From the IMG/VR virus record IMGVR_UViG_3300024520_000012, positions 1-44,659 of that record: DNA of 44,659 nucleotides. The stretch is one strand, 5' to 3'. Both the position numbers and the translations under genes were made by a program. The stretch is from a virus. The notes under the pieces are model-generated. The model saw nothing but the letters and a program-made list of their open reading frames with translations, had not been told where the DNA came from and made no database searches. This document shows positions 3,228-44,521 of this stretch, piece after piece. How positions within the stretch are numbered: the stretch's first letter is position 1; every line of letters begins with the position of its first letter.

Positions 3228-3287
3228 TTGCACCCCGGCCCGGATCGGTTACCTTTACTAGCGTGCTGAGGGGGTGGTCCTCTCAGC
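3228..3287 (+). promoter_or_regulatory. Promoter-hairpin cassette, copy 6
   Basis: TTGCAC (3228-3233), 16-base spacer, TACCTT (3250-3255), palindrome 3265-3287, GGAG, then ATG 3305. This is the last copy in this direction. The genes from 3305 to 4575 overlap one another and are probably read from it. Confidence 0.8.
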
Positions 3288-3304
3288 GAAACCCCGGAGA
3301 GACG

Positions 3305-3496
3305 ATGACTCAAGAATCCAGAAAGGAGCTCGGTGCGCGGGCGGTCGCCCGGATGCACACGCTACTCGTCTCGATCGCGGCCAGGCCGCACCACCGGATA
3401 CCCGGCCACTGCGCCGGCTGTGGGCACCCGAGCGCGGAGGTTCTCTGCTCGAAGTGCCACGACAAAGTTTACCACCAAGCAAAGGAGGACAAATGA
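3305..3496 (+). CDS. Small zinc-ribbon protein, 63 aa
   Basis: The C-terminal half has two close CxxC pairs (CAGC about residues 36-39 and CSKC about 48-51) with the spacing of a small zinc ribbon. The N-terminal half is a basic helix (SRKELGARAVARMHTLLVSIA). The start is ATG 3305, just after the GGAG of cassette copy 6. The stop shares bases with ATG 3493 of the LPD29-like gene (ATGA), so translation is probably coupled. Small zinc-ribbon proteins in phage early regions often bind nucleic acids or the transcription machinery, but nothing here decides the role. Confidence 0.65.
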   Translation: MTQESRKELGARAVARMHTLLVSIAARPHHRIPGHCAGCGHPSAEVLCSKCHDKVYHQAKEDK

Positions 3497-4005
3497 ACCA
3501 GAAGTTCGAATGGCTAACGGCCGTTGAAACGGCTAAGTGGCTGCGCAAGGCTTTGCGCAAGGCTTTCCCCGGCGTTAAGTTCCGCGTCAACGGCAGCCGG
3601 GGCACGGGCTACGGTTACTACGACGTGCGTTGGACTGGCGGCCCGAGCTACGACGAGGTCAAGGAGATTACCCGCGGCTTCGAGGGCACGCACTTCGGCA
3701 CGGACGAACACGGTAATCAGGACATCGAGTTCAGCGTGCCGACCTTCCTCGGCGTGGCAGAAGACGGCCGGCCGGTTCGCTCCGGTATGCGCGGCATCGC
3801 GTTGCAGCGCGACGTCCCCGAAGAAGAGATCGAGGCCAACGTGGCAATCTTGCGCGCCGAGTGGGGCTTCACCGGCCCCGAGCACAATCTCCGCAATGCC
3901 GCGGAGATGATGGCGAGAGGCTCCGAGGTGCCGAGAGCTCTCCAGTACTACCCCCTCACGAAGGAGACTAACCAAGTAACAACCAAGGAGAATGATGATG
4001 CTTGA
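3493..4005 (+). CDS. LPD29-like domain protein, 170 aa
   Basis: Residues about 10-75 match my memory of the large polyvalent protein-associated domain 29 (LPD29): a helix TAKWLRKALRKAFPGVKF, then a glycine-rich turn, then YYDVRWTGGPSYDEVKEI and a final RGFEG. LPD29 is found in many phage and mobile-element proteins, either alone or as part of larger polyvalent proteins, and its molecular role is unsettled. The rest (about 80-170) is unrecognised and mostly helical. AAAGGAGG lies just before ATG 3493, which fixes the start. The gene overlaps its neighbours on both sides in a short cysteine-rich gene cluster. Confidence 0.7.
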   Translation: MNQKFEWLTAVETAKWLRKALRKAFPGVKFRVNGSRGTGYGYYDVRWTGGPSYDEVKEITRGFEGTHFGTDEHGNQDIEFSVPTFLGVAEDGRPVRSGMRGIALQRDVPEEEIEANVAILRAEWGFTGPEHNLRNAAEMMARGSEVPRALQYYPLTKETNQVTTKENDDA

Positions 4006-8673: not shown

Positions 8674-9081
8674 GTGTCAGATCGCCGCCGTCTACTTCGT
8701 CTCATTCTCCGCCACACCAAAAACCCCCGGATACGTGAGGCGGCTCGGCGCTTACGCTTGGAGGTGCGGCAAGCAGAACAGCGGTTTCGGCGGCGCCAAG
8801 AGGAAAAAGGGCGGGGGCTTGCACTCTTCGGCCTGACCCTTTACCTTGTGTTCGTGATTAGCAGCGCGCAAAAGTGCCTTTGGTGTGGCGAGGCTCGCGC
8901 CCGCGGCTTCTCCCGCGCGATTACCTACACGCTTAAGGAAGAGGCCGCGGACACGCTTAAGGCCGCAGGGTGGCATTACGACGGTGAGACGAAGGGCGGC
9001 ACGTGGAACCGCCCGAGCCGAGCTCGCGTCGATAAGGCTCCGACAGGCAAGAAAACGCGATGGCGGCGGGATCTCTCGTGA
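8674..9081 (+). CDS. Hypothetical protein with CxxC motif, 135 aa; start uncertain
   Basis: Unrecognised. The first 45 residues from GTG 8674 are extremely Arg-rich (RRRLLRLILRHTKN, then RFRRRQEEKGRG). They are followed by a hydrophobic run FGLTLYLVFVI and then KCLWCGEARARGF. The hydrophobic run is encoded by DNA that also matches a TTGCAC-17-TACCTT promoter (8819-8847), so part of this N-terminus may not be translated in the main product. GTG 8854 just after the promoter would give a 75-residue protein starting near VISSAQKC. The C-terminal part (TLKEEAADTLKAAGWHYDGE, then WNRPSRAR) is basic and may bind nucleic acid. It overlaps the HTH gene downstream. Confidence 0.5.
   Translation: MSDRRRLLRLILRHTKNPRIREAARRLRLEVRQAEQRFRRRQEEKGRGLALFGLTLYLVFVISSAQKCLWCGEARARGFSRAITYTLKEEAADTLKAAGWHYDGETKGGTWNRPSRARVDKAPTGKKTRWRRDLS
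8819..8847 (+). promoter_or_regulatory. Promoter like the cassette promoters, without hairpin
   Basis: TTGCAC (8819-8824), a 17-base spacer and TACCTT (8842-8847) have the same two boxes as the six cassettes, and even the upstream GGGGGC resembles them. The downstream palindrome is missing. It lies inside the frame opening at 8674 and could drive the internal start at 8854 and the HTH gene at 9060. Confidence 0.55.
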
Positions 9082-9453
9082 CGGAGACTCTTGCCACAAT
9101 CGAGCGCCAGGCCATCGAGGCGGCACTCGATCGGCACGATGGCTACTCCGACGTTGTCGACCGCGCGGCGGCGGATCTCGGCGTAAGCCGCTCGCTGATA
9201 TACCGCCGATTGCACGCATGGCGTACGCTAGACGGGGTAAGGCTCCCGGCCGAGGCCCGCTCGGTGGGGGTTACCGCTGACGAGGTGGCCTGCATTTTCG
9301 GGCGTCTTACGCAGCGGGAGCTCGCCGAGCGCGCGGGGTTCTCGCCGGCGACGGCTTCCGGGCGGGTGCGAGAGGCGTTACGGCTTCTTGGGCGTCGTAA
9401 AACGCGGAGGGGGCTGGCCCTTTTGCCCTCTTCCGTGCTACGGTGCCGGCACC

Positions 9454-9467
<14 letters not shown>
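9060..9467 (+). CDS. Double helix-turn-helix regulator, Fis-type plus sigma-4-like, 135 aa
   Basis: Residues about 14-52 match a Fis-type HTH: a helix ERQAIEAALDRHDG, then AAADLGVSRSLIYRRLHAW. A second HTH follows at about 82-115 (LTQRELAERAGFSPATASG, then RVREALRLLGRR), similar to the LuxR or sigma region-4 type. Two DNA-binding motifs and nothing else point to a transcription factor, for example a switch to structural gene expression. The start could be ATG 9060 or GTG 9078; the latter overlaps the preceding stop as GTGA and has a GCGGGA-like SD. The gene sits just upstream of the portal and the head operon, which fits a late-gene activator. That role is inference. Confidence 0.65.
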
Positions 9468-9648
<181 letters not shown>

Positions 9649-9653
9649 CGTCG

Positions 9654-12600
9654 GTGGTTTCCGAGCTTCGTCTGCGGAACCAAAGCCAGCAGCTTTACGT
9701 GCGCGCGCTCTCGACGGCGTGGCGCAACAGCATCGAGTTACACGACCCGAGCCTTTGGCTCCTGCGCGAGCCGGAACTCGAAGAGAAGATGCTGCGCGAC
9801 GCGGACATTGCGCACGCCGTGCAGTACCGCCGGCATATGATTGCTGGCCAGCGCTGGGCGGTCTTGCCTCGGATCGAAGGGTCGCCCCGTGCTCCGGTCG
9901 CCGTTAGCGTTGCGACGGAGCTTCTGGACGGAATAAAGAACTTCACGCAGGCTAGGCTTAACCTGGCACGTGCTTTCTTCTCTGGTTCGCGTTTCGGCTT
10001 TATCCACGGCTGCACGCGCAAGATGAAGATAGGCGACGGGGTCGAACGTCTATGGTGGTGCCCGACAACGATCGAAGACCGCGACAAGCGAACGTACCGC
10101 ATCGTTCCCGAGAATGACGGCGAGACACTCGCGGCGCATTGGGAGATATGGAACATTCCGAAGACGATATTTGAGCCCGAGACAATCGAAGACGCGGCGC
10201 AGACTATCCGCCACGTCTACCAAGAAGACCAAGCGAGCCTCGGCCACGGCCGCGCGCTGCGCGAGGCGCTCGGCTGGTGGTGGTACGCTAAGACCCACGT
10301 CTTTGAGGAGTCGTTACAAGCGGTAGAGCGGTTCGCGCAGGGTATCCTCGCCGCGAAGGTCGACGGCGCCAGAGATGCCGAGAGTGGGTTGCCTAACACG
10401 GAGCTCATTCGGGAATGGCGCGCAGTGCTTGAGGATCTGCGCGCGCGCAATGTGCTCGTATACGACTCAGCCGATCAGATCGAACATATCAGCATGAACG
10501 CGAGCGGGTGGGAGTTGCTCTCGACGATACGGGAGGAGCTACGCTCGACGATCTTCACGCTAATTCTGGGCGCAAACCTCACTACCTCGGCAAACAAAGG
10601 CGGGAGCTACGCTCTCGCTTCGATACAGGAGAACAGCACCGAAGCCCTCGTGCAGTACGACCGCGAAACCCTGGAGGAGACACTCACCGACGACCTTCTG
10701 GGCTGCGTGTGGTTCAAGAACCACGCGAACCTGGTCGAGCTCGGGATCGCCGAAGAGAAACCCCGCTTTAACGTCACGCAAGAGAAGAGGGAAGACCCGA
10801 AAGAGCGCGCGGACGTGGCTTCGGTGCTCAACCAAATGGGCGTCGAGCTATCTCTCGAAGACGTACTCGAACAGACAGGGTTTCGTAAGCCCGAGCCGGG
10901 CGAGGCCCTCGTCGAGAAGCCCGAGCCGGCGCCTGACCCGTTCGGCGGCGACGGGAGCCTGGGGCGGATTAACCCTCTGGGCGGACAGCCGGGCATGTTC
11001 CAGCGCGCAGACTTCGAGGTGCGGCACGCGCCGGCGGGGAGCTCGGAGGGCGGCCAGTTTCTCCCCGCGGACGACGCCGGCGGCGCTACTTTGGGCAAGC
11101 CTCTGCGCGAGATGAGCAAGGCGGAATATCACAACGTGATTTCGGCCTCCAAGGTGGTCGAGCGCATCGTGCGCGACTCGTATGGGGCAGTCGACGCTCG
11201 GGCCATTGGCGAGAAGGTGCGTGGGGAAGGGAAGTTATACCGCGCGACGGATGTCAACCTCGCCGACCTTGAGATCCAAGACGAGAAGAACGTCGACCCC
11301 TCGCGTGCGACACCCTCGAAGGGCGCCATCGTTGTCGATAGCTCGGGATTCATCATCGACGGGCGGCACCGAGCGGCGGCAGCCAAGGCGCGCGGTGATA
11401 CGACCATACGCGCATTGGTGCCGACCAACGACACCCGGCCCTACGAGCAGATGTTAGAGGAGGAGTCCGAAAACATGCGCGCCAGCTTCGAGGTGCGGCA
11501 CGCGCCGGCGGGGAGCTCGGAGGGCGGCCAGTTTCTCCCCGCGGACGACGCCGGCGGTGGTGGCTCGAAAGACGACAAGAAGGACAAGCCTAAGAAGGAC
11601 AAGCCTAAGAAGGACAAGCCTAAGAAGGACAAGCCTAAGAAGGACAAGCCTAAGAAGGACAGGTACGCACCGCCACGCTCGGACCCGCCGGAGGACGAAC
11701 CTGGCGCAAATTATTGGGAAGATTACTACCTGCGGGATGACGAGCCGGCGCGGGATCAAACCGGCGAGCCCAAGAAGGCGCCGATATTGGTGGATACGCC
11801 GGAGGGCGGGGCCAAAAACATCAAGCCGTACGTCGAGCAGAGAGCCGAGGAGCATCAACACCGGAAGCAACGCATACAGCAGGATCTCGACGATGGCCGT
11901 CTCACGCCCGAGACTGCGCAAGCACTCGACGCGGCGCTAGAGCGGCGCTTCAGCGAAGCGAACGCCAGGGTTGCGACGGCGGGGTATAACAACGAGGCCG
12001 AAACAGACAAACGGCATACGATCGGAGATACCGGCGAGTGGTCGATGGAGCGCAGGGCGATGCACAACGAGATCGTAGCGAATGTGATGCGTGGGGTGCC
12101 CCCCTCGGAGAACAAGACGTTCCAAATGATGGGCGGTGGCCCGGCGGCGGGGAAATCGAGCATAATCCGAGAAGGGTTTATGAGCTTGCCGGCGGCGCAC
12201 GTCATGTCGAACGCCGACGAGTTTAAGGAAGAGATTCCCGAATACAGAAACGCGGCGGCTAAGCGAGAGAAGGCGGCGGCTTGGAACGCGCACGAGGAGA
12301 GCAGTATGCTCGGCAAGCGCGTAATGCGTGAATCGCGCGAAGCGGGGCTCGACGTTGTTTGGGACGGCACCGGGGACCACAGCCTGGAGAAGCTCGCGTC
12401 TCAGGTAAAGCCGTTCCGCGATGCCGGTTACCAGGTGAAAGCCGATTACGTGACGGTAGACCCCTCGGAGGCGTGGTCTCGCGCGAAGGGGCGCGCGGCC
12501 AAGTCCGGCCGCTATGTGCCCGAGGATGTGGTAAAGGAGACACACCGAAACGTATCTCGGATGTGGGGGAACGCCGTTAAAGCGGGACTGTTCGACGAGT

Positions 12601-12911
12601 CGAACCTCTACGATACGAACACTCGGACCCCTAAGCTAATCGCGAGCGCTAAGGGGACCGAGATCGTGGTGCACGACCAGGAGGCTTTCGACCGTTTCGA
12701 GTCCCACGGGATGCCCGAGCGGACCCAGCGAAGGGAGGAAGCGGCGAGAGAGAAGGAGAAAGCCATTCGGGGAGGCCGGAGCCCTCTCAGCTATCCCGGG
12801 GGAACTCTACCAAAAGCGCTCATCGGGCCAACCAAACCCCTGAAAGGCAACCCAACCAAGGGGCCGGACGACATCGACTACGAGGATTATTACTTACGAG
12901 ATGACACTTAA
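9654..12911 (+). CDS. Portal fused to ParB-like and zeta-toxin kinase domains, 1085 aa
   Basis: Residues 1-430 match DUF935 (Mu gp29-type) portals, with ADIAHAVQYRRHMIAGQRW near the start and the INASGWELL/ANLTTSANKGGSYALASIQ region around 285-325. The portal forms the DNA gate of the capsid. A segment with DGRHRAAAAKARGD near 568-581 resembles a ParB-like domain. A Lys-rich linker (643-667) leads to a zeta-toxin-like kinase: Walker A GGGPAAGKSS near 826-835, NADEF as the likely catalytic Asp region, VVWDGTGD, and the late Arg-rich RAKGRAAKSGRYVP. Zeta toxins phosphorylate UDP-N-acetylglucosamine and block wall synthesis. A 24-residue segment is repeated exactly (about 453-476 and 611-634), and EDYYLRDD occurs at 689-696 and again at the C-terminus (1077-1084). 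Such fusions are known as polyvalent proteins. The start is GTG 9654. Confidence 0.88.
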   Translation: MVSELRLRNQSQQLYVRALSTAWRNSIELHDPSLWLLREPELEEKMLRDADIAHAVQYRRHMIAGQRWAVLPRIEGSPRAPVAVSVATELLDGIKNFTQARLNLARAFFSGSRFGFIHGCTRKMKIGDGVERLWWCPTTIEDRDKRTYRIVPENDGETLAAHWEIWNIPKTIFEPETIEDAAQTIRHVYQEDQASLGHGRALREALGWWWYAKTHVFEESLQAVERFAQGILAAKVDGARDAESGLPNTELIREWRAVLEDLRARNVLVYDSADQIEHISMNASGWELLSTIREELRSTIFTLILGANLTTSANKGGSYALASIQENSTEALVQYDRETLEETLTDDLLGCVWFKNHANLVELGIAEEKPRFNVTQEKREDPKERADVASVLNQMGVELSLEDVLEQTGFRKPEPGEALVEKPEPAPDPFGGDGSLGRINPLGGQPGMFQRADFEVRHAPAGSSEGGQFLPADDAGGATLGKPLREMSKAEYHNVISASKVVERIVRDSYGAVDARAIGEKVRGEGKLYRATDVNLADLEIQDEKNVDPSRATPSKGAIVVDSSGFIIDGRHRAAAAKARGDTTIRALVPTNDTRPYEQMLEEESENMRASFEVRHAPAGSSEGGQFLPADDAGGGGSKDDKKDKPKKDKPKKDKPKKDKPKKDKPKKDRYAPPRSDPPEDEPGANYWEDYYLRDDEPARDQTGEPKKAPILVDTPEGGAKNIKPYVEQRAEEHQHRKQRIQQDLDDGRLTPETAQALDAALERRFSEANARVATAGYNNEAETDKRHTIGDTGEWSMERRAMHNEIVANVMRGVPPSENKTFQMMGGGPAAGKSSIIREGFMSLPAAHVMSNADEFKEEIPEYRNAAAKREKAAAWNAHEESSMLGKRVMRESREAGLDVVWDGTGDHSLEKLASQVKPFRDAGYQVKADYVTVDPSEAWSRAKGRAAKSGRYVPEDVVKETHRNVSRMWGNAVKAGLFDESNLYDTNTRTPKLIASAKGTEIVVHDQEAFDRFESHGMPERTQRREEAAREKEKAIRGGRSPLSYPGGTLPKALIGPTKPLKGNPTKGPDDIDYEDYYLRDDT
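11012..11083 (+). repeat. 72-bp perfect direct repeat, copy 1
   Basis: Identical to 11486-11557, 474 bases (158 codons) downstream and in frame. It encodes a linker with FEVRHAPAGSSEGGQFLPAD at the end of the portal proper. Confidence 0.95.
11486..11557 (+). repeat. 72-bp perfect direct repeat, copy 2
   Basis: Second copy of the 72-base repeat, placed between the ParB-like domain and the Lys-rich linker leading to the zeta kinase. The two copies bracket the ParB-like module exactly. Confidence 0.95.
11580..11654 (+). repeat. 15-bp tandem repeat encoding Lys-Pro-rich linker
   Basis: Five exact units of AAGGACAAGCCTAAG encode a repeated KDKPK linker. It probably works as a flexible, strongly basic tether between the portal/ParB part and the kinase. 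Confidence 0.95.
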
Positions 12912-12914
12912 GCT

Positions 12915-13085
12915 ATGAGCGACGAAAAGCCTCTTGATGGAGACGAGATCCAGGCGATTCTAGGCGCCGCGATCGCAGGGAAGCCCAACCCGGTACGGGG
13001 AGAGAGGGCGAAAAAGCTGTTCGCGTCTATAAAAGCCGACCTTGATGCAAACCCCGAGCTGATAGTCGACATCCCGAAGTTTTGA
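12915..13085 (+). CDS. 56-aa protein beside the zeta domain; antitoxin candidate
   Basis: A 57-codon frame begins at ATG 12915, three bases after the portal-zeta stop, and its TGA overlaps the TTG start of the MuF gene. The protein is acidic at its start (SDEKPLDGDEIQAIL), then basic and helical (GERAKKLFASIKADLDANPE), and ends in VDIPKF. Zeta toxins are usually held in check by a small helical antitoxin encoded alongside. Position and size make this a candidate, but it is shorter than the classic epsilon antitoxin and I do not recognise the family. It might equally be a small head-assembly protein. Confidence 0.55.
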   Translation: MSDEKPLDGDEIQAILGAAIAGKPNPVRGERAKKLFASIKADLDANPELIVDIPKF

Positions 13086-13966
13086 ACGCCGACAAGTTTC
13101 TCGAAGGCCTGGGCAGCACACACGCACGTTTTTACTTCGCTGCGGTGCACGACTTGTACGTGGCCAAGGTGCGGGGCAACAGGCCCGCCGCCGCCGATGC
13201 ACGCCACGAGCTCGCGCGTGTCATGGCCGAGACCATAGGCGCCGCGGAGGTGCTTGGCGCTATGATGACACTACAGGCCGCCGCTAAAGGCGCCAGGTTC
13301 GCGGCCGAGCAGACCGTGCTGCCCCGTGTCACGCTAGCCGAAGCTCTCGACGACCTCGTCGCGCGGGCACCGGTGACGTTGCGCAACGCGGCGGAGCGGA
13401 CGGCGCAGAAGATCGCAGAGCTCTACACTGAGGATAGAGTTATGGCGTTCGTCCGGTCGGCCGAGGATACGGTTACGCGCGAGGCGCAGAACTTCGTCTC
13501 TCGGGCCTTTCGGGAAGGGCTTGCAGAGAACGAAGCCGGGCGCCGGATCTCGATGGCCGTCGAGCAAGTGCGCGAGCTTACGGAGCCGTGGTCTGAGGGT
13601 TACTCCCGTATGGTCTTCCGTACGAATGTGAATACGGCGGTAACTGCCGGCAGGTTTCGGCAGTCTCAAGACCCCGAGGTGCGGGCTGTTGTGCCCGCCT
13701 TCGTCTTCGATTCGGTTAACGACAGCGATACGCGCCACAACCACGGCGTTCTGGACGGGGTGGTTATGGCCGTCGACGACCCGAGATGGAACAAGCTCTC
13801 GCCGCCGCTAGGTTATAACTGCCGGTGCCAAGTGCGCCACGTGAGCGTAGTCGAGCTCGAAGCGATGGGCCGGCTCCGTGATGGTAGCGTGATCGCATCC
13901 TCTATCCCGGCAGACGGAGGGCCTGACCCCGGGTTCCGGCACGGGGGGCGGCCCGATCTACTGTGA
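13082..13966 (+). CDS. MuF-type head morphogenesis protein, 294 aa
   Basis: The C-terminal 110 residues carry the signature of Mu gpF / SPP1 gp7 minor head proteins: a region RMVFRTNVNTAVTAGRF, then DTRHNHGVLDGVV, WNKLSPPLGYNCRCQV and VS. These proteins bind the portal inside the head and help DNA exit. The N-terminal 170 residues are helical and variable, as usual for the family. The start is TTG 13082, overlapping the stop of the 56-aa gene; the next in-frame ATG would cut off conserved helical sequence. Placement directly after the portal is standard. There is no C-terminal toxin domain here, since the extra domains are on the portal instead. Confidence 0.88.
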   Translation: MNADKFLEGLGSTHARFYFAAVHDLYVAKVRGNRPAAADARHELARVMAETIGAAEVLGAMMTLQAAAKGARFAAEQTVLPRVTLAEALDDLVARAPVTLRNAAERTAQKIAELYTEDRVMAFVRSAEDTVTREAQNFVSRAFREGLAENEAGRRISMAVEQVRELTEPWSEGYSRMVFRTNVNTAVTAGRFRQSQDPEVRAVVPAFVFDSVNDSDTRHNHGVLDGVVMAVDDPRWNKLSPPLGYNCRCQVRHVSVVELEAMGRLRDGSVIASSIPADGGPDPGFRHGGRPDLL

Positions 13967-14163
13967 CCAGGCACGAATGGACGAAGACCCGAGACGCTTT
14001 TCGCCGTATTGCGGCCCGCGAGGGTATCCGTAAGATAGCGCCGGCGGTGCCTACGCACCCCGCGACCATTTACCGCATTATCCGCGGCGAGACATCCGAG
14101 CCGCATCAAGCGACGAAGGACGGGATCGCGCGCGTCGTCGAGAAATACAAGGAGAAGCAATGA
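13963..14163 (+). CDS. Small helix-turn-helix protein, 66 aa
   Basis: GTG 13963 overlaps the MuF stop (GTGA), and the TGA overlaps ATG 14160 of the next gene. Residues about 15-55 look like a Cro/CI-type HTH: RRIAAREGIRKIAPAV as the first helices, then PATIYRIIRGETSEPH as the recognition helix and turn, then a closing helix DGIARVVEKYKEK. Similar small HTH proteins are common in phages and may be repressors or simply DNA-binding packaging factors. Its position inside the head operon is odd for a repressor, since it would be made only late. Confidence 0.65.
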   Translation: MTRHEWTKTRDAFRRIAAREGIRKIAPAVPTHPATIYRIIRGETSEPHQATKDGIARVVEKYKEKQ

Positions 14164-14405
14164 CCCTACTAGATACACGCAGCGCGCCGAAGCGGGCCGT
14201 TGTTATTACGCCGGCGGACTCCGACCTCGTGAATCCCGTGCGGCGCCTCTATGTCGGTGGCACGGGCAATATAACGCTCACTACCGTTGCCGGCGACGCG
14301 GTGCTCATCTCGGCGATCCCGGTCGGCACGACCCTCGACGTAGAGTGCAAACGGGTTTCGAACACGGGCACGACGGCGACGCTCATCGTCGGTTTTTACG
14401 ACTAG
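14160..14405 (+). CDS. Spike base protein-like, RCAP_Rcc01079 family candidate, 81 aa
   Basis: The pattern VVITPADSDLVNPVRRLYVG, then GNITLTTVAGDAVLISAIP, VGTTLDVECKRVSNTGTTAT, then LIVGFYD resembles the small beta proteins called spike base proteins of the Rhodobacter gene transfer agent (Rcc01079 family), which anchor fibres or spikes on the capsid surface. The length of 81 aa is also typical. It overlaps the HTH gene before it (ATGA) and lies directly upstream of the protease/scaffold gene, among capsid genes. This implies that the virion head may carry surface spikes. The assignment is from remembered family pattern. Confidence 0.65.
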   Translation: MTLLDTRSAPKRAVVITPADSDLVNPVRRLYVGGTGNITLTTVAGDAVLISAIPVGTTLDVECKRVSNTGTTATLIVGFYD

Positions 14406-14409
14406 CGCT

Positions 14410-15774
14410 ATGGCATACAAACAATCTCGCAACAGCATGGGCCACCTCACGGTGCACCGCGTGCCTATCTTCGTCGAGTGCAAGCGCGGCGATACCGATT
14501 ACGACGCGACATGGATCGCGGAGGCTGTGCGCAAGGCCAAGCAGGGTGAGCTCGAAGGCTACTTCCCACCTCTGCACATTCGACACCACGGGGACGGCGA
14601 GGCCGTCAAGTCCGCCGGCTTCTTCAAGGTGATAGGCGCAGGCCCTATCACCTACCGAGGTACCACGCGCACAGCGATATACGCCGATCTGGTGATAACC
14701 GCGGAGGGAGTCGAGGACGACTTGCTGCAAGCGCGGCTACCTTACCGCTCGGTCGAGATTTTCAACGTCGACGACCCCGCGATAACCTCGCTGGCACTAC
14801 TTGACCACGAACCCCCGTATCTGGAGCTACCTATGCTGATGATCGCCGAGGGTGCCCCGGCGACGCCAGGGGCAGCCCCGATCACGACTCCCGGCGTCGC
14901 AAACGCGACTTTCGCTAACCCGTGGGCCTCGCAGACGCGCACGCCGCCAGATTCCGTGGTAGCGTGTTTCCGTCGAGGCCTATCCGCTCACATTCTCACG
15001 CAGGACGACGCACCCATGGCAGCCAAAACGAAGCACTTCGCCGAAGAAGACGACAACGGCGACAAGACGAAGAAAGAAGCAGAGAACGGCGAGCAGATGG
15101 ACGTCGACGGTGGCGTTGACATCGGCGGGATCGTGAAAGCGATAACCGACGGATCTATCTCCGTCGCGGACATGGAGGCGATCAAGGCGGCAATCATCGA
15201 GCAACAGGGCCAGGTGGGCGCGGAGGCCGAAGCGGCCGAAGAGCCGGCCGCTCCGGCGCCTGTCCCGGGTGGAGCGATGAAGCAAACGCCGGCGCAGTTG
15301 CCGGCGCAGTTCGCCGCGATGCAAGGCAAGATCGACGCCCAGGACGCGAAGATCGCAGCCATGGAACAAACGACGCAGCGCGAGAAGGCGATCGTCGAGG
15401 CGCTCGCGCGGCTCGCGGATCGACCCCTCGGCGCTGACCCGGAGGCCAAGTTCGGCAAGTTCTACGACGATCACGGCGCCGAGGCTTTCGCCGCGTACAT
15501 CAACGAATACGCCTCCACGTTCGCGGCAATCGCAGGCAACAGCGACAGCAAGGCCCTGGCGTTCTCGAAGACGAGCTCGCCGGTGAGCAAGCTCGCGCTC
15601 TCGTACACCGAAGCCGGCACCGAGGCCGTCGACAAAGCGGCGACCTTCTCGGCCGAGCACGAGCAACTCTCTACGCGCGGGCTTACCCGCATGAGCGAAG
15701 AGAAGTACGTCGCTTTCAACATGCACCGCCTCGGGTTCGAGGCGCCGGCCGCGAGCTCGGCCGTTTCCTCATAG
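14410..15774 (+). CDS. Mu I-like capsid maturation protease and scaffold, 454 aa
   Basis: The N-terminal 140 residues have the layout of Mu-type phage proteases: WIAEAVRKAKQGELEGYFPP, HIRHHGDGEAVKSAGFFKV, IYADLVITAEGVEDDL and YRSVEIFNV. This enzyme cleaves the scaffold during head maturation. The rest is typical scaffold: acidic (EEDDNGDKTKKEAENGEQ), Ala/Pro/Gln-rich and coiled-coil (about 295-340, QGKIDAQDAKIAAMEQ). An internal ATG at 15016, preceded by CAGGACG, could start a scaffold-only product, as in Mu and lambda. The gene stands directly before the decoration and capsid genes. No Asp/Glu protease motif other than this is visible in the head cluster. Confidence 0.78.
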   Translation: MAYKQSRNSMGHLTVHRVPIFVECKRGDTDYDATWIAEAVRKAKQGELEGYFPPLHIRHHGDGEAVKSAGFFKVIGAGPITYRGTTRTAIYADLVITAEGVEDDLLQARLPYRSVEIFNVDDPAITSLALLDHEPPYLELPMLMIAEGAPATPGAAPITTPGVANATFANPWASQTRTPPDSVVACFRRGLSAHILTQDDAPMAAKTKHFAEEDDNGDKTKKEAENGEQMDVDGGVDIGGIVKAITDGSISVADMEAIKAAIIEQQGQVGAEAEAAEEPAAPAPVPGGAMKQTPAQLPAQFAAMQGKIDAQDAKIAAMEQTTQREKAIVEALARLADRPLGADPEAKFGKFYDDHGAEAFAAYINEYASTFAAIAGNSDSKALAFSKTSSPVSKLALSYTEAGTEAVDKAATFSAEHEQLSTRGLTRMSEEKYVAFNMHRLGFEAPAASSAVSS

Positions 15775-16304: not shown

Positions 16305-17303
16305 ATGAGCGACGTTATTGCAAGTGGGGTGCTAGCCAACGGCTTGCGCACCGACTTCTGGGACACCTACGCGGCGATCCGAAACCGTCAAGCTGACAGC
16401 CGGCTCTCGATGGTGATGGATCTGGGCATTCCCGCCACCAACCGAGAGCACAAGTTCGGGTACATCGAAGCCGCCCCACACTTCGAGCAGTGGGTGCGCG
16501 GCCAGTCCATCCCGACCGACGCGATGGACTCGACCGACTTCACGGTGCCCGTGTTCACATGGGGCCGCCGTGTTCGTTGGCACAACGAAGACCGCGAGGA
16601 CGACCAGACGCAAAGCCTGTTCGACATCGCGCGCCAGGCCGGCCAATCGGCCGGGTTGTTGCCAGAGCGGTTCTTCTTCGACCTCATCACGGGCTCGACT
16701 AACACGCTGCCCGCGGTGCCTTTGGCGCCCGACGGTGCTGCGATGTTCGCGACCACGGACGGCGGCGGCGGCGCTCGCTTCGGTGCTAGCGGCGGCAACC
16801 TGCTCACAGGTTCGGGCGTGGCTTCCGTCAGCGCGATCCGCACGGACTACTACAACGCTATCGAACAGTGGAAGGCGCTCCAGGACGGCAAGGGGCAACC
16901 GCTCCTATCCGACGAGACCATCGACTCGGGCGTCGTGCTCGTGCACGGCTCCGGCAACACCGAGGCTTTCGAGGAGGCTTTCTTGCAGAAGCGCCAGGGC
17001 GAGATCTACGGCTCGAACACGGCCGCGAGCACGCCAACGAACTTGGTGCATGACGCGAGCCGCAACGTGGACCTCTGGGGCACGCAACGCATCTCCGACA
17101 ACGACTGGTTCATGTTCCTCAAGAACCCACCGAAGAAGGCTACGTTCTTCCTCGACCGCAAGGGCATTATGGAAGAGTCCAGCTTGCGCGGAGAGAACAA
17201 CGGCGACTTGATGCGCGACACGGGCACCGAATACATCCAGTGGCACAGCCGTTCCGGCGGTGGTATTGCACTTCCGTTCGGCGCAATGAAGGTCAACAAC
17301 TAG
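16305..17303 (+). CDS. Major capsid protein, Mu gpT-like, 332 aa
   Basis: Size, position and sequence fit the Mu major head subunit (gpT): a helical N-terminal region, ANREHKFGYIEAAPHFEQW, FTVPVFTWGRRVRWHNEDRE, SLFDIARQAGQSAGLLPERF, a Gly-rich loop about 170-190, VLVHGSGNTEAFEEAF, and the closing HSRSGGGIALPFGAMKV. HK97-fold capsids of this type assemble the shell around the scaffold. The start is ATG 16305. It is followed by a strong terminator, as expected for the most abundant virion protein. Confidence 0.93.
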   Translation: MSDVIASGVLANGLRTDFWDTYAAIRNRQADSRLSMVMDLGIPATNREHKFGYIEAAPHFEQWVRGQSIPTDAMDSTDFTVPVFTWGRRVRWHNEDREDDQTQSLFDIARQAGQSAGLLPERFFFDLITGSTNTLPAVPLAPDGAAMFATTDGGGGARFGASGGNLLTGSGVASVSAIRTDYYNAIEQWKALQDGKGQPLLSDETIDSGVVLVHGSGNTEAFEEAFLQKRQGEIYGSNTAASTPTNLVHDASRNVDLWGTQRISDNDWFMFLKNPPKKATFFLDRKGIMEESSLRGENNGDLMRDTGTEYIQWHSRSGGGIALPFGAMKVNN

Positions 17304-42557: not shown

Positions 42558-42902
42558 ATGCCGATAATCGAGACTCCCGCCGAGTTGGTGCTTAAGGTCA
42601 AGGGTGGGCGCACGGGGCGCGTGGAGCTCATCGCCGTGTGCCGTCGGATGGCGATCGAGGAAGGCACGACGCTCGAAGTGATGCTGTGGGAAACTGTCAA
42701 GGGTGTGGCGCATTGGGCACGCCACGGGGACGCGGCGTGCGCGAAACTCATGCTCTCGCTTTTCGCGAGGGACGAGGCCTCGGCGCCCGAGGGGGTGCCG
42801 AGCGCGAAGGACGTCGAGATCGGGCCGCCCGTGCCGCGCGACCAGGCGCACTACGCCGAGCTCGGCGAGAAGGTGATCGCAGAGCTCGACCTACTCGCAT
42901 GA
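42558..42902 (+). CDS. Probable terminase small subunit, 114 aa
   Basis: Position directly before the large terminase, and a size and helical make-up (LKVKGGRTGRVELIAVCRRM, AIEEGTTLEVMLWETVKGVA, HWARHGDAACAKLMLSLFAR) fit a small terminase subunit, which recognises phage DNA for packaging. No firm HTH motif is visible. I start it at ATG 42558, which has GGAGG at the right distance; an ATG at 42546 overlaps that SD. Its stop shares bases with the large subunit start (ATGA). Confidence 0.55.
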   Translation: MPIIETPAELVLKVKGGRTGRVELIAVCRRMAIEEGTTLEVMLWETVKGVAHWARHGDAACAKLMLSLFARDEASAPEGVPSAKDVEIGPPVPRDQAHYAELGEKVIAELDLLA

Positions 42903-44521
42903 AAACACCCGAGGAACGCCTGGAGCTTTTCGGCCGCGCGCTAGGCGCGGCCACCGCCCCCGGTGCCGTCGAGCACCTCACGCGCCGGCTCGTGCCGGGC
43001 ATTGTGGGCAACCCCTTCTGCCCGCACTTTCCGCACCCGAAGCAACTGGCGGGGCTCTTCGTGCCTGAGTGGCACGACGACAAGGGCGGCCCCTTCGAGA
43101 TGCTCTTCGGCGGCGCCGCCGGCGGGGGCAAGAGCGATTGGCTTCTCATGCTCGCGGCGGCGCGCGCGTGGCGGTGGCCCCATTACCGCGGCGTCGTTCT
43201 GCGGCGCACCCATGCCGAGATGATAAAAGCGGGCGCCGTCTTGTCGCGCGCGATGTCGTGGTGGCTGCCGGCCGGGGTCGCATGGAACGGGACTGAGAAG
43301 CGCTTTCGTTTTCCGAACGGCGCCGAGGTCGAGTTCGGTTATCACGCGAACCCGAAAGACGATAGCCAGTACCAGGGCGGCGAGTGGCACGACGCACTCT
43401 TCGACGAGCTCACGCACTGGCCCGACGAGGGCGCCTTCGAGTGGCTGCGTTCGCGCTTGCGCACGAACGAAGGCGACCCGCTTACGCGCCGCCTCATCGG
43501 TACGAGCAACCCAGGCGGCCCCGGCCACGTGTGGGTAAAGCACCGGTTCGTCGGTGGCACGGATATAGCCAGCGGTGCGAGCTTCGACGCGCGCTCGTTC
43601 TACCTGCCCTCGAAGATCAACGACAACCCGAGCCTGGACCGCGAGGCCTACGTCGCGACGCTGCAAGAGATGCACCCGACGCGCCGCGCGCAACTGCTCG
43701 ACGGCGATTGGGGCGCGCGCGAGCCAGGCGATTATTTCCGCGCCGAGTGGTTCGGCCCTCTGCTCGACGAGCCGAGCCGCGACCTCGTCGCGATTCGGTG
43801 GTGGGATCTGGCCGCGAGCGAGAAGAAAGACGCAGCGCGTACGGCCGGCGTCCGCATGGCGCGACTACGCGCCGGCGTGCGCGTCATCACGCACGCGACG
43901 GCCTTCCGAGCGACGCCAGGCAAACGCGACTCGAAGATCGCGCAGCAAGCGCAACTCGACGGCCGCAGCACTATCGTCGGGATCGAGATTGAAGGGGGCA
44001 GCGGCGGCCCGGCGCAGTTCGAGGCCCTGGCGAAACGACTGCGCGCCGAAGGCTACCGCGTCGTCGGAGCTCGACCGCGCGCCGGCCAGCAACTCACCGA
44101 CCCCGAGAAGGGCTCGCTAGCGATCAACACGCCGAGCGACAAGGGCAAGACCGCGCGCGCGGACCCGGTGGCGTCGTGTCTCGAACGCGGTTACCAACGC
44201 CGCGGCGAGTGTGATCGGACAAGCGCGCCCTACTGGGGCCTCGACGCTGGCCGCGGTGTTGCACAGCAGCGCGACGGTTTGCGTCTCGTCGCCGGTGCGT
44301 GGACACAAGGCTACCTCGACGAGATCGAGGGTTTCCCCGACGCCACGCTAAAAGACCTCGTAGACGCCACCTCGGGCGCGTGGTCGTGGCTGCAAGCGCA
44401 CCCCTACGGCCTGCGGGTTGCCCCGAGCGAAGGGACGAAAGCGCCCGCCGTTACGCAGGACACGCACCCGGACGACCGCCCCGAGGTCGAAGAGCCCGCC
44501 GGCCGATTCTGGCGGCCGTAG
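42899..44521 (+). CDS. terL: Terminase large subunit, 540 aa
   Basis: The DNA-packaging motor. The ATPase has Walker A LFGGAAGGGKSDW (Lys78) and Walker B DALFDELTHW (Asp169, Glu170), followed by LIGTSNPGGPGH as the coupling motif. The nuclease domain has IRWWDLAASEKKD with its Asp, IVGIEIEGGSGG, then RADPVASCLERGY. The start at ATG 42899 overlaps the small subunit stop; the longer open frame upstream lies within that gene. It is preceded by the small subunit and followed, after about 45 bases, by the cassette that also forms the left end of the window. It is therefore the last gene before the circle closes. Confidence 0.95.
   Translation: MKTPEERLELFGRALGAATAPGAVEHLTRRLVPGIVGNPFCPHFPHPKQLAGLFVPEWHDDKGGPFEMLFGGAAGGGKSDWLLMLAAARAWRWPHYRGVVLRRTHAEMIKAGAVLSRAMSWWLPAGVAWNGTEKRFRFPNGAEVEFGYHANPKDDSQYQGGEWHDALFDELTHWPDEGAFEWLRSRLRTNEGDPLTRRLIGTSNPGGPGHVWVKHRFVGGTDIASGASFDARSFYLPSKINDNPSLDREAYVATLQEMHPTRRAQLLDGDWGAREPGDYFRAEWFGPLLDEPSRDLVAIRWWDLAASEKKDAARTAGVRMARLRAGVRVITHATAFRATPGKRDSKIAQQAQLDGRSTIVGIEIEGGSGGPAQFEALAKRLRAEGYRVVGARPRAGQQLTDPEKGSLAINTPSDKGKTARADPVASCLERGYQRRGECDRTSAPYWGLDAGRGVAQQRDGLRLVAGAWTQGYLDEIEGFPDATLKDLVDATSGAWSWLQAHPYGLRVAPSEGTKAPAVTQDTHPDDRPEVEEPAGRFWRP

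What the first reader, a model, noticed from the sequence alone, without database searches (positions are those of the whole stretch)
9654..13085. Portal protein fused to ParB-like and zeta-toxin kinase domains, with a small partner gene
A full portal is followed in the same frame by DGRHR-type ParB-like and zeta-like kinase domains (Walker A GGGPAAGKSS, NADEF, late Arg residues). A 56-codon frame lies directly after it. Portals occur in 12 copies at one vertex, so a portal-bound kinase would be carried in each virion and could reach the cell during entry or act late in infection. Zeta enzymes block peptidoglycan precursor synthesis. The small gene may be an antitoxin. Polyvalent fusions with such domains are known in general, but this exact arrangement, on the portal rather than on MuF, looks unusual.
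Basis: partly seen in the sequence, partly recalled or inferred. Interest (0 to 1): 0.82.

Follow-up and report, generated by a model that had tools for sequence, protein, structure and literature searches.

The report
Phage portal carrying a zeta-like kinase
A virus of bacteria has its DNA gateway protein joined to a toxin-like kinase, followed by a tiny gene resembling a so far unnamed family that turns up beside the same kinase on other phage head proteins, which points to a toxin and its safety catch carried by phage heads.

Summary
ORF 9654-12911 (1085 aa) is a Mu-type portal fused in frame to a DGRHR module (ParB-like, weakly supported) and a confidently modelled zeta-fold kinase. A 56-aa gene follows, then MuF.

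(2) Relatives of the kinase ride on MuF/head-morphogenesis proteins, head proteases and two other portal families, so portal placement recurred. (3) The small gene resembles a diverged family, unnamed in Pfam, PHROGs and PDB, linked to this kinase across unrelated carriers: 34 hits at E<=0.01, all in kinase loci, none in 64 portal-clade loci without it. P0002's own membership rests on position plus modest scores.

Most likely: a head-borne kinase with a downstream antitoxin-like partner, working like AvrRxo1:Arc1 or MuF toxin-immunity pairs. UDP-GlcNAc as target is doubtful: two UDP-contacting residues are changed. Virion loading, release, toxicity and neutralisation are inferred. Portal-effector and zeta-MuF fusions are in print, so: new variant of a known kind.

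The parts
9654..10967 (+). Portal part (aa 1-438), Mu-type
   Evidence: Portal_Mu aa 42-409, E 3.9e-36; 80% identical over residues 1-432 to the portal of L002
11012..11083 (+). Linker copy 1, 72 nt identical to copy 2; encodes FEVRHAPAGSSEGGQFLPADDAGG (codons 11013-11084)
   Evidence: Repeat family D3; exact run measured
11085..11486 (+). ParB-like module with GFIIDGRHR
   Evidence: Weak: PHROG ParB-like families E 0.034-0.079; no Pfam/PDB match; low pLDDT
11486..11557 (+). Linker copy 2, 474 nt after copy 1, in frame
11577..11661 (+). Lys-rich tandem repeat, 15-nt unit x 5.7
   Evidence: Tandem Repeats Finder
11718..11741 (+). EDYYLRDD copy 1
11820..12005 (+). Predicted helical hairpin before the kinase
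   Evidence: AlphaFold2 model residues 269-330
12018..12719 (+). Zeta-fold kinase (aa 789-1022; Lys834, Asp855, Arg947, Arg953 counted from alignment A9)
   Evidence: Zeta_toxin E 8.3e-26; block-mean pLDDT 85-98; 1gvn_B Z 20.7; invariant residues
12882..12905 (+). EDYYLRDD copy 2, near the C-terminus
12915..13085 (+). 56-aa gene (P0002), proposed kinase partner
   Evidence: Rank 1 of 829 window ORFs with a family model built without it, E 0.041, next 6.0; hhalign P 0.0016; 10 of 20000 shuffles score as high; but E 1.1-4.8 over all 22306 ORFs
13082..13966 (+). MuF minor head protein, no cargo domain found
   Evidence: Phage_Mu_F E 2.7e-16
16305..17303 (+). Major capsid protein (context)
   Evidence: Phage_capsid_4 E 2.4e-11
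42638..44521 (+). Terminase large subunit (context)
   Evidence: phrog_979 E 1.8e-74

Best explanation
The phage uses its portal as a carrier for host-directed enzymes. Shown: portal, ParB-like module and kinase are one open frame; the kinase has the zeta-toxin fold and its catalytic Lys and Asp; the small gene directly after it resembles a family that accompanies this kinase on unrelated carriers. Inferred: the fusion is made late in infection and assembled, so that up to twelve copies of the cargo lie inside the head by the portal; the 56-aa partner holds the kinase inactive, or chaperones it, in the producing cell; the linker peptides are release points or targeting tags; kinase that reaches the next cell without its partner phosphorylates a small molecule there. 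The acceptor is unknown and need not be UDP-GlcNAc. The system would work like AvrRxo1:Arc1 (injected zeta-fold kinase, downstream antitoxin) or like MuF toxin-immunity pairs.
For: Kinase. Same kinase on other head carriers: among 20 representative proteins 2 are portals of other families (L069, Phage_portal_3 E 2e-14; L082, Phage_portal E 5.1e-39), 7 MuF or head-morphogenesis proteins, 2 head proteases, 9 other or unassigned; on a tree of 30 kinases the portal label (3 rows) needs 3 changes, 0% of 200 bootstrap trees need only one, at least 2 are forced. Partner: the full model finds 34 ORFs at E<=0.01 among 22306 in 147 loci, all in kinase loci; the best in 64 loci without kinase (10528 ORFs) is E 0.26 over twelve leave-out models; 8 of 12 groups are recovered when left out; no hit at E<=1 among 11907 ORFs of 80 loci from other phages; partner-first scans of viral contigs gave 7 loci, all 7 on kinase contigs; a bacterial contig not used in the model (L152) has a hit right after its kinase, E 0.0017. 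Cargo slot: 5 of 60 portals (59 loci plus window), 4 of 36 clusters, carry 311-647 aa of cargo.
Against: P0002 left out at group level scores only E 4.8 over all ORFs; its membership leans on position. L081, L119 and L082 also fail leave-out. 25 of 36 kinase clusters have no partner hit at E<=0.01, some on truncated contigs; four further kinase-like ORFs (L177, L191, L196, L230) have none either. Of 11 bacterial loci searched (13 were found), only L152 and L150 have a hit at E<=0.01, and L150 appears to be the same contig as L076. The 64 control loci are all of one portal clade. In the L088 group the partner lies 1-3 kb away on the other strand, odd for a co-translated antitoxin. The one apparent kinase-partner fusion (L089) was modelled with low confidence and a different secondary structure there, so there is no docking evidence. 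Nothing here shows the fusion in a virion; a portal is not ejected (recalled).
Confidence: 0.5

Rival explanations
1. The kinase acts in the cell that makes it, late in infection (against superinfecting phages, host defence, or cell-wall synthesis before lysis); fusion to an abundant late protein is only a way to be expressed, and the fused form need not enter particles.
For: Position between portal and MuF; a portal is not ejected (recalled). Bare portals in close kin (L002, L004) show that assembly does not need the cargo.
Against: Relatives recur on MuF, portals and head proteases (11 of 20 representatives), that is on head components rather than on any late gene; a separate late gene would serve as well.
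Confidence: 0.25
2. The small protein is not an antitoxin but a head-assembly factor or chaperone for bulky cargo, which need not inhibit the enzyme.
For: In the PSS2 group it lies 280-500 nt downstream and in the L088 group on the opposite strand, so strict co-translation is not kept; MuF and portals are assembly proteins.
Against: No hit at E<=0.01 in 64 loci without kinase, all of which were fetched by their portal gene: it follows the kinase, not this carrier. Arc1 was first called a chaperone and acted as an antitoxin in E. coli (PMC4938570, passages).
Confidence: 0.25
3. The cargo guards the portal: enzymes held next to the portal act on host immune sensors that recognise packaging proteins.
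For: PMC9503650 offers this as an alternative for ARTs near portal or terminase genes (passage). Among 65 protein segments with this kind of linker one matches Acb1 (anti-CBASS) and one a 2H-like family.
Confidence: 0.1
4. Artefact: a chance or assembly-made fusion of a portal and an unrelated gene.
For: The only record of 21 in its portal clade with a kinase match over the cut-off (records may be fragments).
Against: No stop or frameshift, other cargo on a kin portal with the same kind of linker (L008, L009), and two other portal families with the same kinase.
Confidence: 0.03

Closest known systems
MuF and portal effector fusions, polyvalent proteins (Iyer et al. 2017, PMC5512222; PMC9503650; passages seen)
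   Same: Head protein fused to effector domains; zeta-like kinase on MuF, and portal fusions to PBECR, 2H, InPase, ART and Nudix, are described there
   Different: I saw no zeta kinase on a portal and no partner family in the passages; here cargo is preceded by duplicated linkers
Cyanophage PSS2 gp030 (minor head protein, PHROG 16619)
   Same: Zeta domain 39.6% identical; ART-like cargo of L010 matches a later part of the same PHROG; partner homologue gp033 downstream
   Different: Carrier is a head-morphogenesis protein of 1499 aa (MuF by its relative L073); partner about 400 nt further on
AvrRxo1:Arc1 (zeta-fold kinase with downstream antitoxin, PMC4938570, passages)
   Same: Fold (Z 19.2), small gene downstream, UDP-GlcNAc contacts not conserved
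   Different: Delivered by type III secretion; Arc1-like proteins are about 81-121 aa with a motif KExFD...ExxYY that I do not see in P0002 by eye
epsilon/zeta and PezAT
   Same: Kinase fold and catalytic Lys/Asp
   Different: No epsilon/PezA match for P0002; kinase gene comes first; two UDP-contacting residues changed
MuF polymorphic toxins (PMC5576092, passages)
   Same: Toxin-like domain on a head protein with a small ORF after it
   Different: Carrier is the portal; MuF here is a separate protein without cargo

Membership tests
Zeta_toxin fold family (PF06414) | Curated profile match | tested here: met
   91.1 bits against cut-off 22.3
Zeta_toxin fold family (PF06414) | Walker A Lys and catalytic Asp | tested here: met
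   Lys45 and Asp66 of the kinase region invariant in alignments of 15 and 27 sequences, window included
Zeta_toxin fold family (PF06414) | Three-dimensional fold | tested here: met
   Predicted model: 1gvn_B Z 20.7, 2p5t_F 19.6, next family 14.7
UNAG kinase (zeta/PezT type) | UDP contacts Arg120 and Glu100 | tested here: not met
   Arg120 aligns with Asp908 and Glu100 with Lys888 in the alignment; contacts from PMC3062530
epsilon/zeta toxin-antitoxin | Epsilon-type antitoxin | tested here: inconclusive
   No Pfam family for P0002 at E<=1; among 11 members only two single chance-level matches; fold not tested
epsilon/zeta toxin-antitoxin | Antitoxin neutralises toxin | not testable with these tools
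   Needs bench assay
MuF polymorphic toxin | Toxin domain on the MuF protein | tested here: not met
   MuF (P0003, 294 aa) has no toxin domain match
Polyvalent protein (Iyer et al.) | Two or more effector domains, tied to a virion component | tested here: inconclusive
   Kinase clear, ParB-like weak
ParB-like (DdrB-ParB) | Profile match or fold | tested here: inconclusive
Portal_Mu (PF06074) | Curated profile match | tested here: met
   125.5 bits against 23.9

The most novel reading that the evidence does not exclude
HxPAGSxxGGQF is a portable head-targeting or processing tag of phage cargo, comparable in role to the T4 capsid-targeting sequence (recalled), and this portal is a self-loading polyprotein whose tags let the ParB-like module and the kinase be cut free inside the head, while the 56-aa antitoxin stays in the producing cell. 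Support: 68 of 90 pattern matches lie in the longest frame at their place, of at least 150 aa; of these 68, 29 lie within 60 aa of the earliest possible start, 33 further inside, 6 in frames open at the contig end; Asn at -3 and Ser at +5 are conserved (each 50 of 67) although the pattern did not ask for them. Of 65 scanned segments, portal models match 7 times, prohead protease S78 3 times, MuF once, and Acb1, 2H-like and zeta once each, ART families twice. Most segments match no listed family, and 13 match a peptidoglycan-binding domain, so a head role is not general proof.
Probability: 0.2. Interest if true: 0.82.

Novelty: new variant of a known kind. Interest (0 to 1): 0.62.

Why it matters
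If right, it gives a small, testable pair: a kinase carried by the phage head and a previously unnamed small protein that may silence it. Because the pair occurs in an isolated phage (PSS2 gp030 and gp033), the question of how head-borne toxins are kept off in the producing cell can be tested now. The repeated linker suggests how phages swap enzyme cargo on head proteins.

Tried and rejected
The linker peptide of the window as a protein query found nothing in isolated phages; the similar tag of L230 found one poor match. Relatives of the portal were sought in the genome collection (84,980 species by the tool's text) with two peptide patterns: none, so no host is assigned. The window kinase alone found nothing in viral contigs; an alignment with PSS2 and DAC16 did.

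Rejected: that the small gene is just part of the portal-MuF slot. The slot holds other small genes in kin without kinase (83 aa in L007, L026-L028; about 180 aa in L004 and L014-L024; 50 aa in L038). Three small genes of kin do not match the partner profile well (hhalign P 0.44 for L027, 0.6 for L008, 0.021 for L010). Not accepted as proof: L089 as a natural kinase-partner fusion. PDB hits of the partner profile, one of them at E 1.7e-5 to RecA with no single stretch passing, look like helical chance matches. The ORFs after the kinases of L070, L086 and L082 were first read as partners by eye but fail the tests; L081 and L119 remain borderline. L124 is counted as 'other' although part of it matches the C-terminal part of a PHROG portal profile. 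No RNA family in 9000-14500.

Rows dropped: four of the 63 portal loci (L060, L063, L065, L066), cut within the portal gene; L005 replaced by L038 (same contig). L059 and L064 are cut at the 5' end but kept. The tool kept the best 80 of 117 kinase loci. Eleven of 13 bacterial loci were searched for the partner (L156 and L160 left out).

Papers: of the six cited I saw passages only; others as search listings. Searches behind 'not seen in print'; the library lacks most subscription journals.
Full report
What is there. The window is a 44.7 kb virus record. ORF 9654-12911 encodes 1085 aa without a stop: Portal_Mu at aa 42-409 and Zeta_toxin at aa 815-970. Between them lies a module with GFIIDGRHR that resembles ParB-like families only weakly (no match). 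A 56-aa gene begins 3 nt after the stop and overlaps the start of MuF. The record also holds a major capsid protein, terminase, a DNA polymerase, an exonuclease, an SNF2-type helicase, an ssDNA-binding protein and a primase/helicase. I did not scan every ORF, so a lytic life style is not shown.

Anatomy of the fusion. The peptide FEVRHAPAGSSEGGQFLPADDAGG precedes both cargo modules, with 72 nt of identical DNA, 474 nt apart and in frame. The DNA identity suggests a recent duplication; recombination between the copies would remove the ParB-like module and leave the frame intact (inference). EDYYLRDD stands before the kinase and at the C-terminus, with diverged DNA. A Lys-rich tandem repeat lies between linker copy 2 and the kinase.

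The kinase. A model from 20 sequences gives block-mean pLDDT 85-98 over the kinase. The best solved structures are zeta toxin 1gvn_B (Z 20.7, rmsd 3.0, 216 residues), PezT (19.6) and AvrRxo1 (19.2); the next family, polynucleotide kinase, has 14.7. A second member, L089, gives the same set of zeta-fold kinases on top, with 1gvn_B first and AvrRxo1 ahead of PezT. The Walker Lys, the catalytic Asp, a HEExS motif and two late arginines are invariant in an alignment of 15 sequences with the window. Of the UNAG contacts described in PMC3062530 (passages), the Asp and Thr118 are kept, but Arg120 aligns with Asp and Glu100 with Lys; Thr128 was not placed. AvrRxo1 likewise lacks most of these contacts and does not phosphorylate UDP-GlcNAc (PMC4938570, passages). 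The acceptor is therefore open.

The portal clade and its slot. An alignment of ten portals found 63 loci in viral contigs and none in genome contigs; the portal part has no match in isolated phages at E 1e-5. Of 60 portal genes with an intact 3' end (59 loci plus the window), 5 carry 311-647 aa of cargo: the window, L008 and L009 (RelA/SpoT-like, Pfam E 0.0045, below the cut-off), L010 (ART-like, PHROG 16619 E 1.9e-8) and L053 (HEFGHAMHG, zincin-like by motif, read by eye; no Pfam match). These are 4 of 36 clusters at 90% identity. The other portals have at most 124 aa beyond the matched region. The nearest kin, L002 and L004, are bare. L008 and L009 carry the same kind of linker, and in L038 a 50-aa ORF with the linker alone sits between portal and MuF. 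Among 21 records of the clade only the window has a Zeta_toxin match over the cut-off; the record of L034 has a sub-threshold one (E 1.1e-4).

The kinase on other carriers. A scan with three kinases gave 117 loci, best 80 kept. Pfam and PHROGs on 20 representatives: portals L069 and L082; MuF or head morphogenesis L068, L071, L073, L084, L088, L089, L115 (L068 and L115 below the Pfam cut-off); head proteases L078 and L140; nine with other or no assigned carrier, including PG-binding, NUDIX and phosphatase domains and L124, part of which matches the C-terminal part of a PHROG portal profile (PHROGs on 10 of the 20). With Portal_Mu here, three portal families carry the kinase. On a tree of 30 kinases the portal label (three rows) needs three changes, bootstrap range 3-3, at least two forced by well-supported branches; with so few rows, shuffled labels do as well, so this shows separate placements, not clustering.

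The small partner. The ORFs after many of these kinases look alike: a helix-like start (xxIxxIMxEVxxG), an EExxFRxxI segment and an end such as DIP or EIP. A profile from 16 sequences finds 34 of 22306 ORFs at E<=0.01, all in kinase loci; many are near-copies, and they stand for 11 of 36 kinase clusters. The 64 loci without kinase (10528 ORFs, all of this portal clade) give none; the best there over twelve leave-out models is E 0.26. A wider control, 11907 ORFs of 80 loci picked by the linker motif, gives none at E<=1, although four ORFs there are kinase-like. Left out as whole groups, 8 of 12 are recovered at E<=0.01, down to 5e-13; L081, L119, L082 and the window are not. Members not used as first seeds include PSS2 gp033. 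Partner-first scans of the viral collection with two sub-alignments gave 5 and 2 loci, all on contigs that carry the kinase; these include sequences that made the queries, so the point is that no locus without kinase appeared. Among 11 of the 13 bacterial loci, L152 (Clostridiales) has a hit directly after its kinase, E 0.0017, and L150 one that appears to be the L076 contig. No Pfam, PHROG or PDB family names the partner.

Is P0002 a member? By itself the score is modest: E 1.1 or 4.8 over all ORFs depending on the model, rank 1 of 829 in the window with E 0.041 against 6.0 for the next, hhalign P 0.0016 against 0.021-0.6 for three small genes of kin, 10 of 20000 shuffles as good. Together with its place right after the kinase I take it as a member, about 0.85.

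How it most likely works. [quoted passage not shown] In AvrRxo1:Arc1 a zeta-fold kinase is injected and its small downstream antitoxin is predicted to cover the ATP site. Antitoxins of zeta kinases need not be epsilon-like: that of the gonococcal zeta toxin has an unrelated fold (PMC5923241, passages). The present pair fits that pattern, with the head as vehicle. That portals are dodecamers whose C-termini face the head interior is recalled, not tested; release from the portal would need cleavage, for which the linkers are only candidates.

The linker. A DNA pattern for HxPAGxxxGGQF in viral contigs stopped at its limit; the 80 listed loci hold 90 matches. In 68 of 90 the motif lies in the longest frame at its place, of 150 aa or more. 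Unrequested positions are conserved (Asn at -3 and Ser at +5, each 50 of 67), and 29 of the 68 lie within 60 aa of the earliest possible start. Of 65 segments, Phage_portal_3 matches 4, Phage_portal 2, Portal_Mu 1, prohead protease S78 3, MuF 1, PG_binding_1 13, DUF6582 8, and single members match Acb1, two ART families, 2H-like, GNAT and Zeta_toxin. It looks like a cargo linker or tag of phage proteins, head proteins among them; its function is unknown to me, and one search listing showed no paper that holds GGQF among its first ten.

Verdict. Portal fusions with effectors and zeta on MuF are in print (PMC5512222, PMC9503650, passages). New, as far as my searches reach, are the recurrent zeta-portal combination, the linked partner family and the duplicated linkers. 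New variant of a known kind, interest 0.62.

Noticed in passing
L204 (contig IMGVR_UViG_3300033482_000002), 649-6216: Seven copies of the HxPAGxxxGGQF motif in 6.8 kb, spread over several neighbouring ORFs, with an eighth on the same contig (L226).
   Followed up: partly
window 3274-4005: Another domain of polyvalent proteins in the record: LPD29 (PF18847, E 4.5e-15) in a 243-aa ORF.
   Followed up: no
L008:6814-7026 and L010:5727-5885: The RelA/SpoT-like and ART-like portal fusions are also followed by small ORFs (70 and 52 aa) that do not match the P0002 family well; possible partners of their own.
   Followed up: partly
L120, L121, L128, L139, just downstream of the kinase ORF: A second kind of small ORF (IPPDSAEYL-type) follows another branch of the same kinase, perhaps a different partner.
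   Followed up: no
window 9567-9637: Perfect CGAGCC hexamer array giving a Glu-Pro or Ser-Pro repeat just before the portal start.
   Followed up: no
L010 and L032, between portal and MuF: Several ORFs fill the slot in two portal-clade phages; two of them look alike between the loci by eye; not assigned to families.
   Followed up: no
L014-L024, between portal and MuF: A conserved gene of about 180 aa, without a Pfam or PHROG match in the one member tested (L016), occupies the slot.
   Followed up: partly
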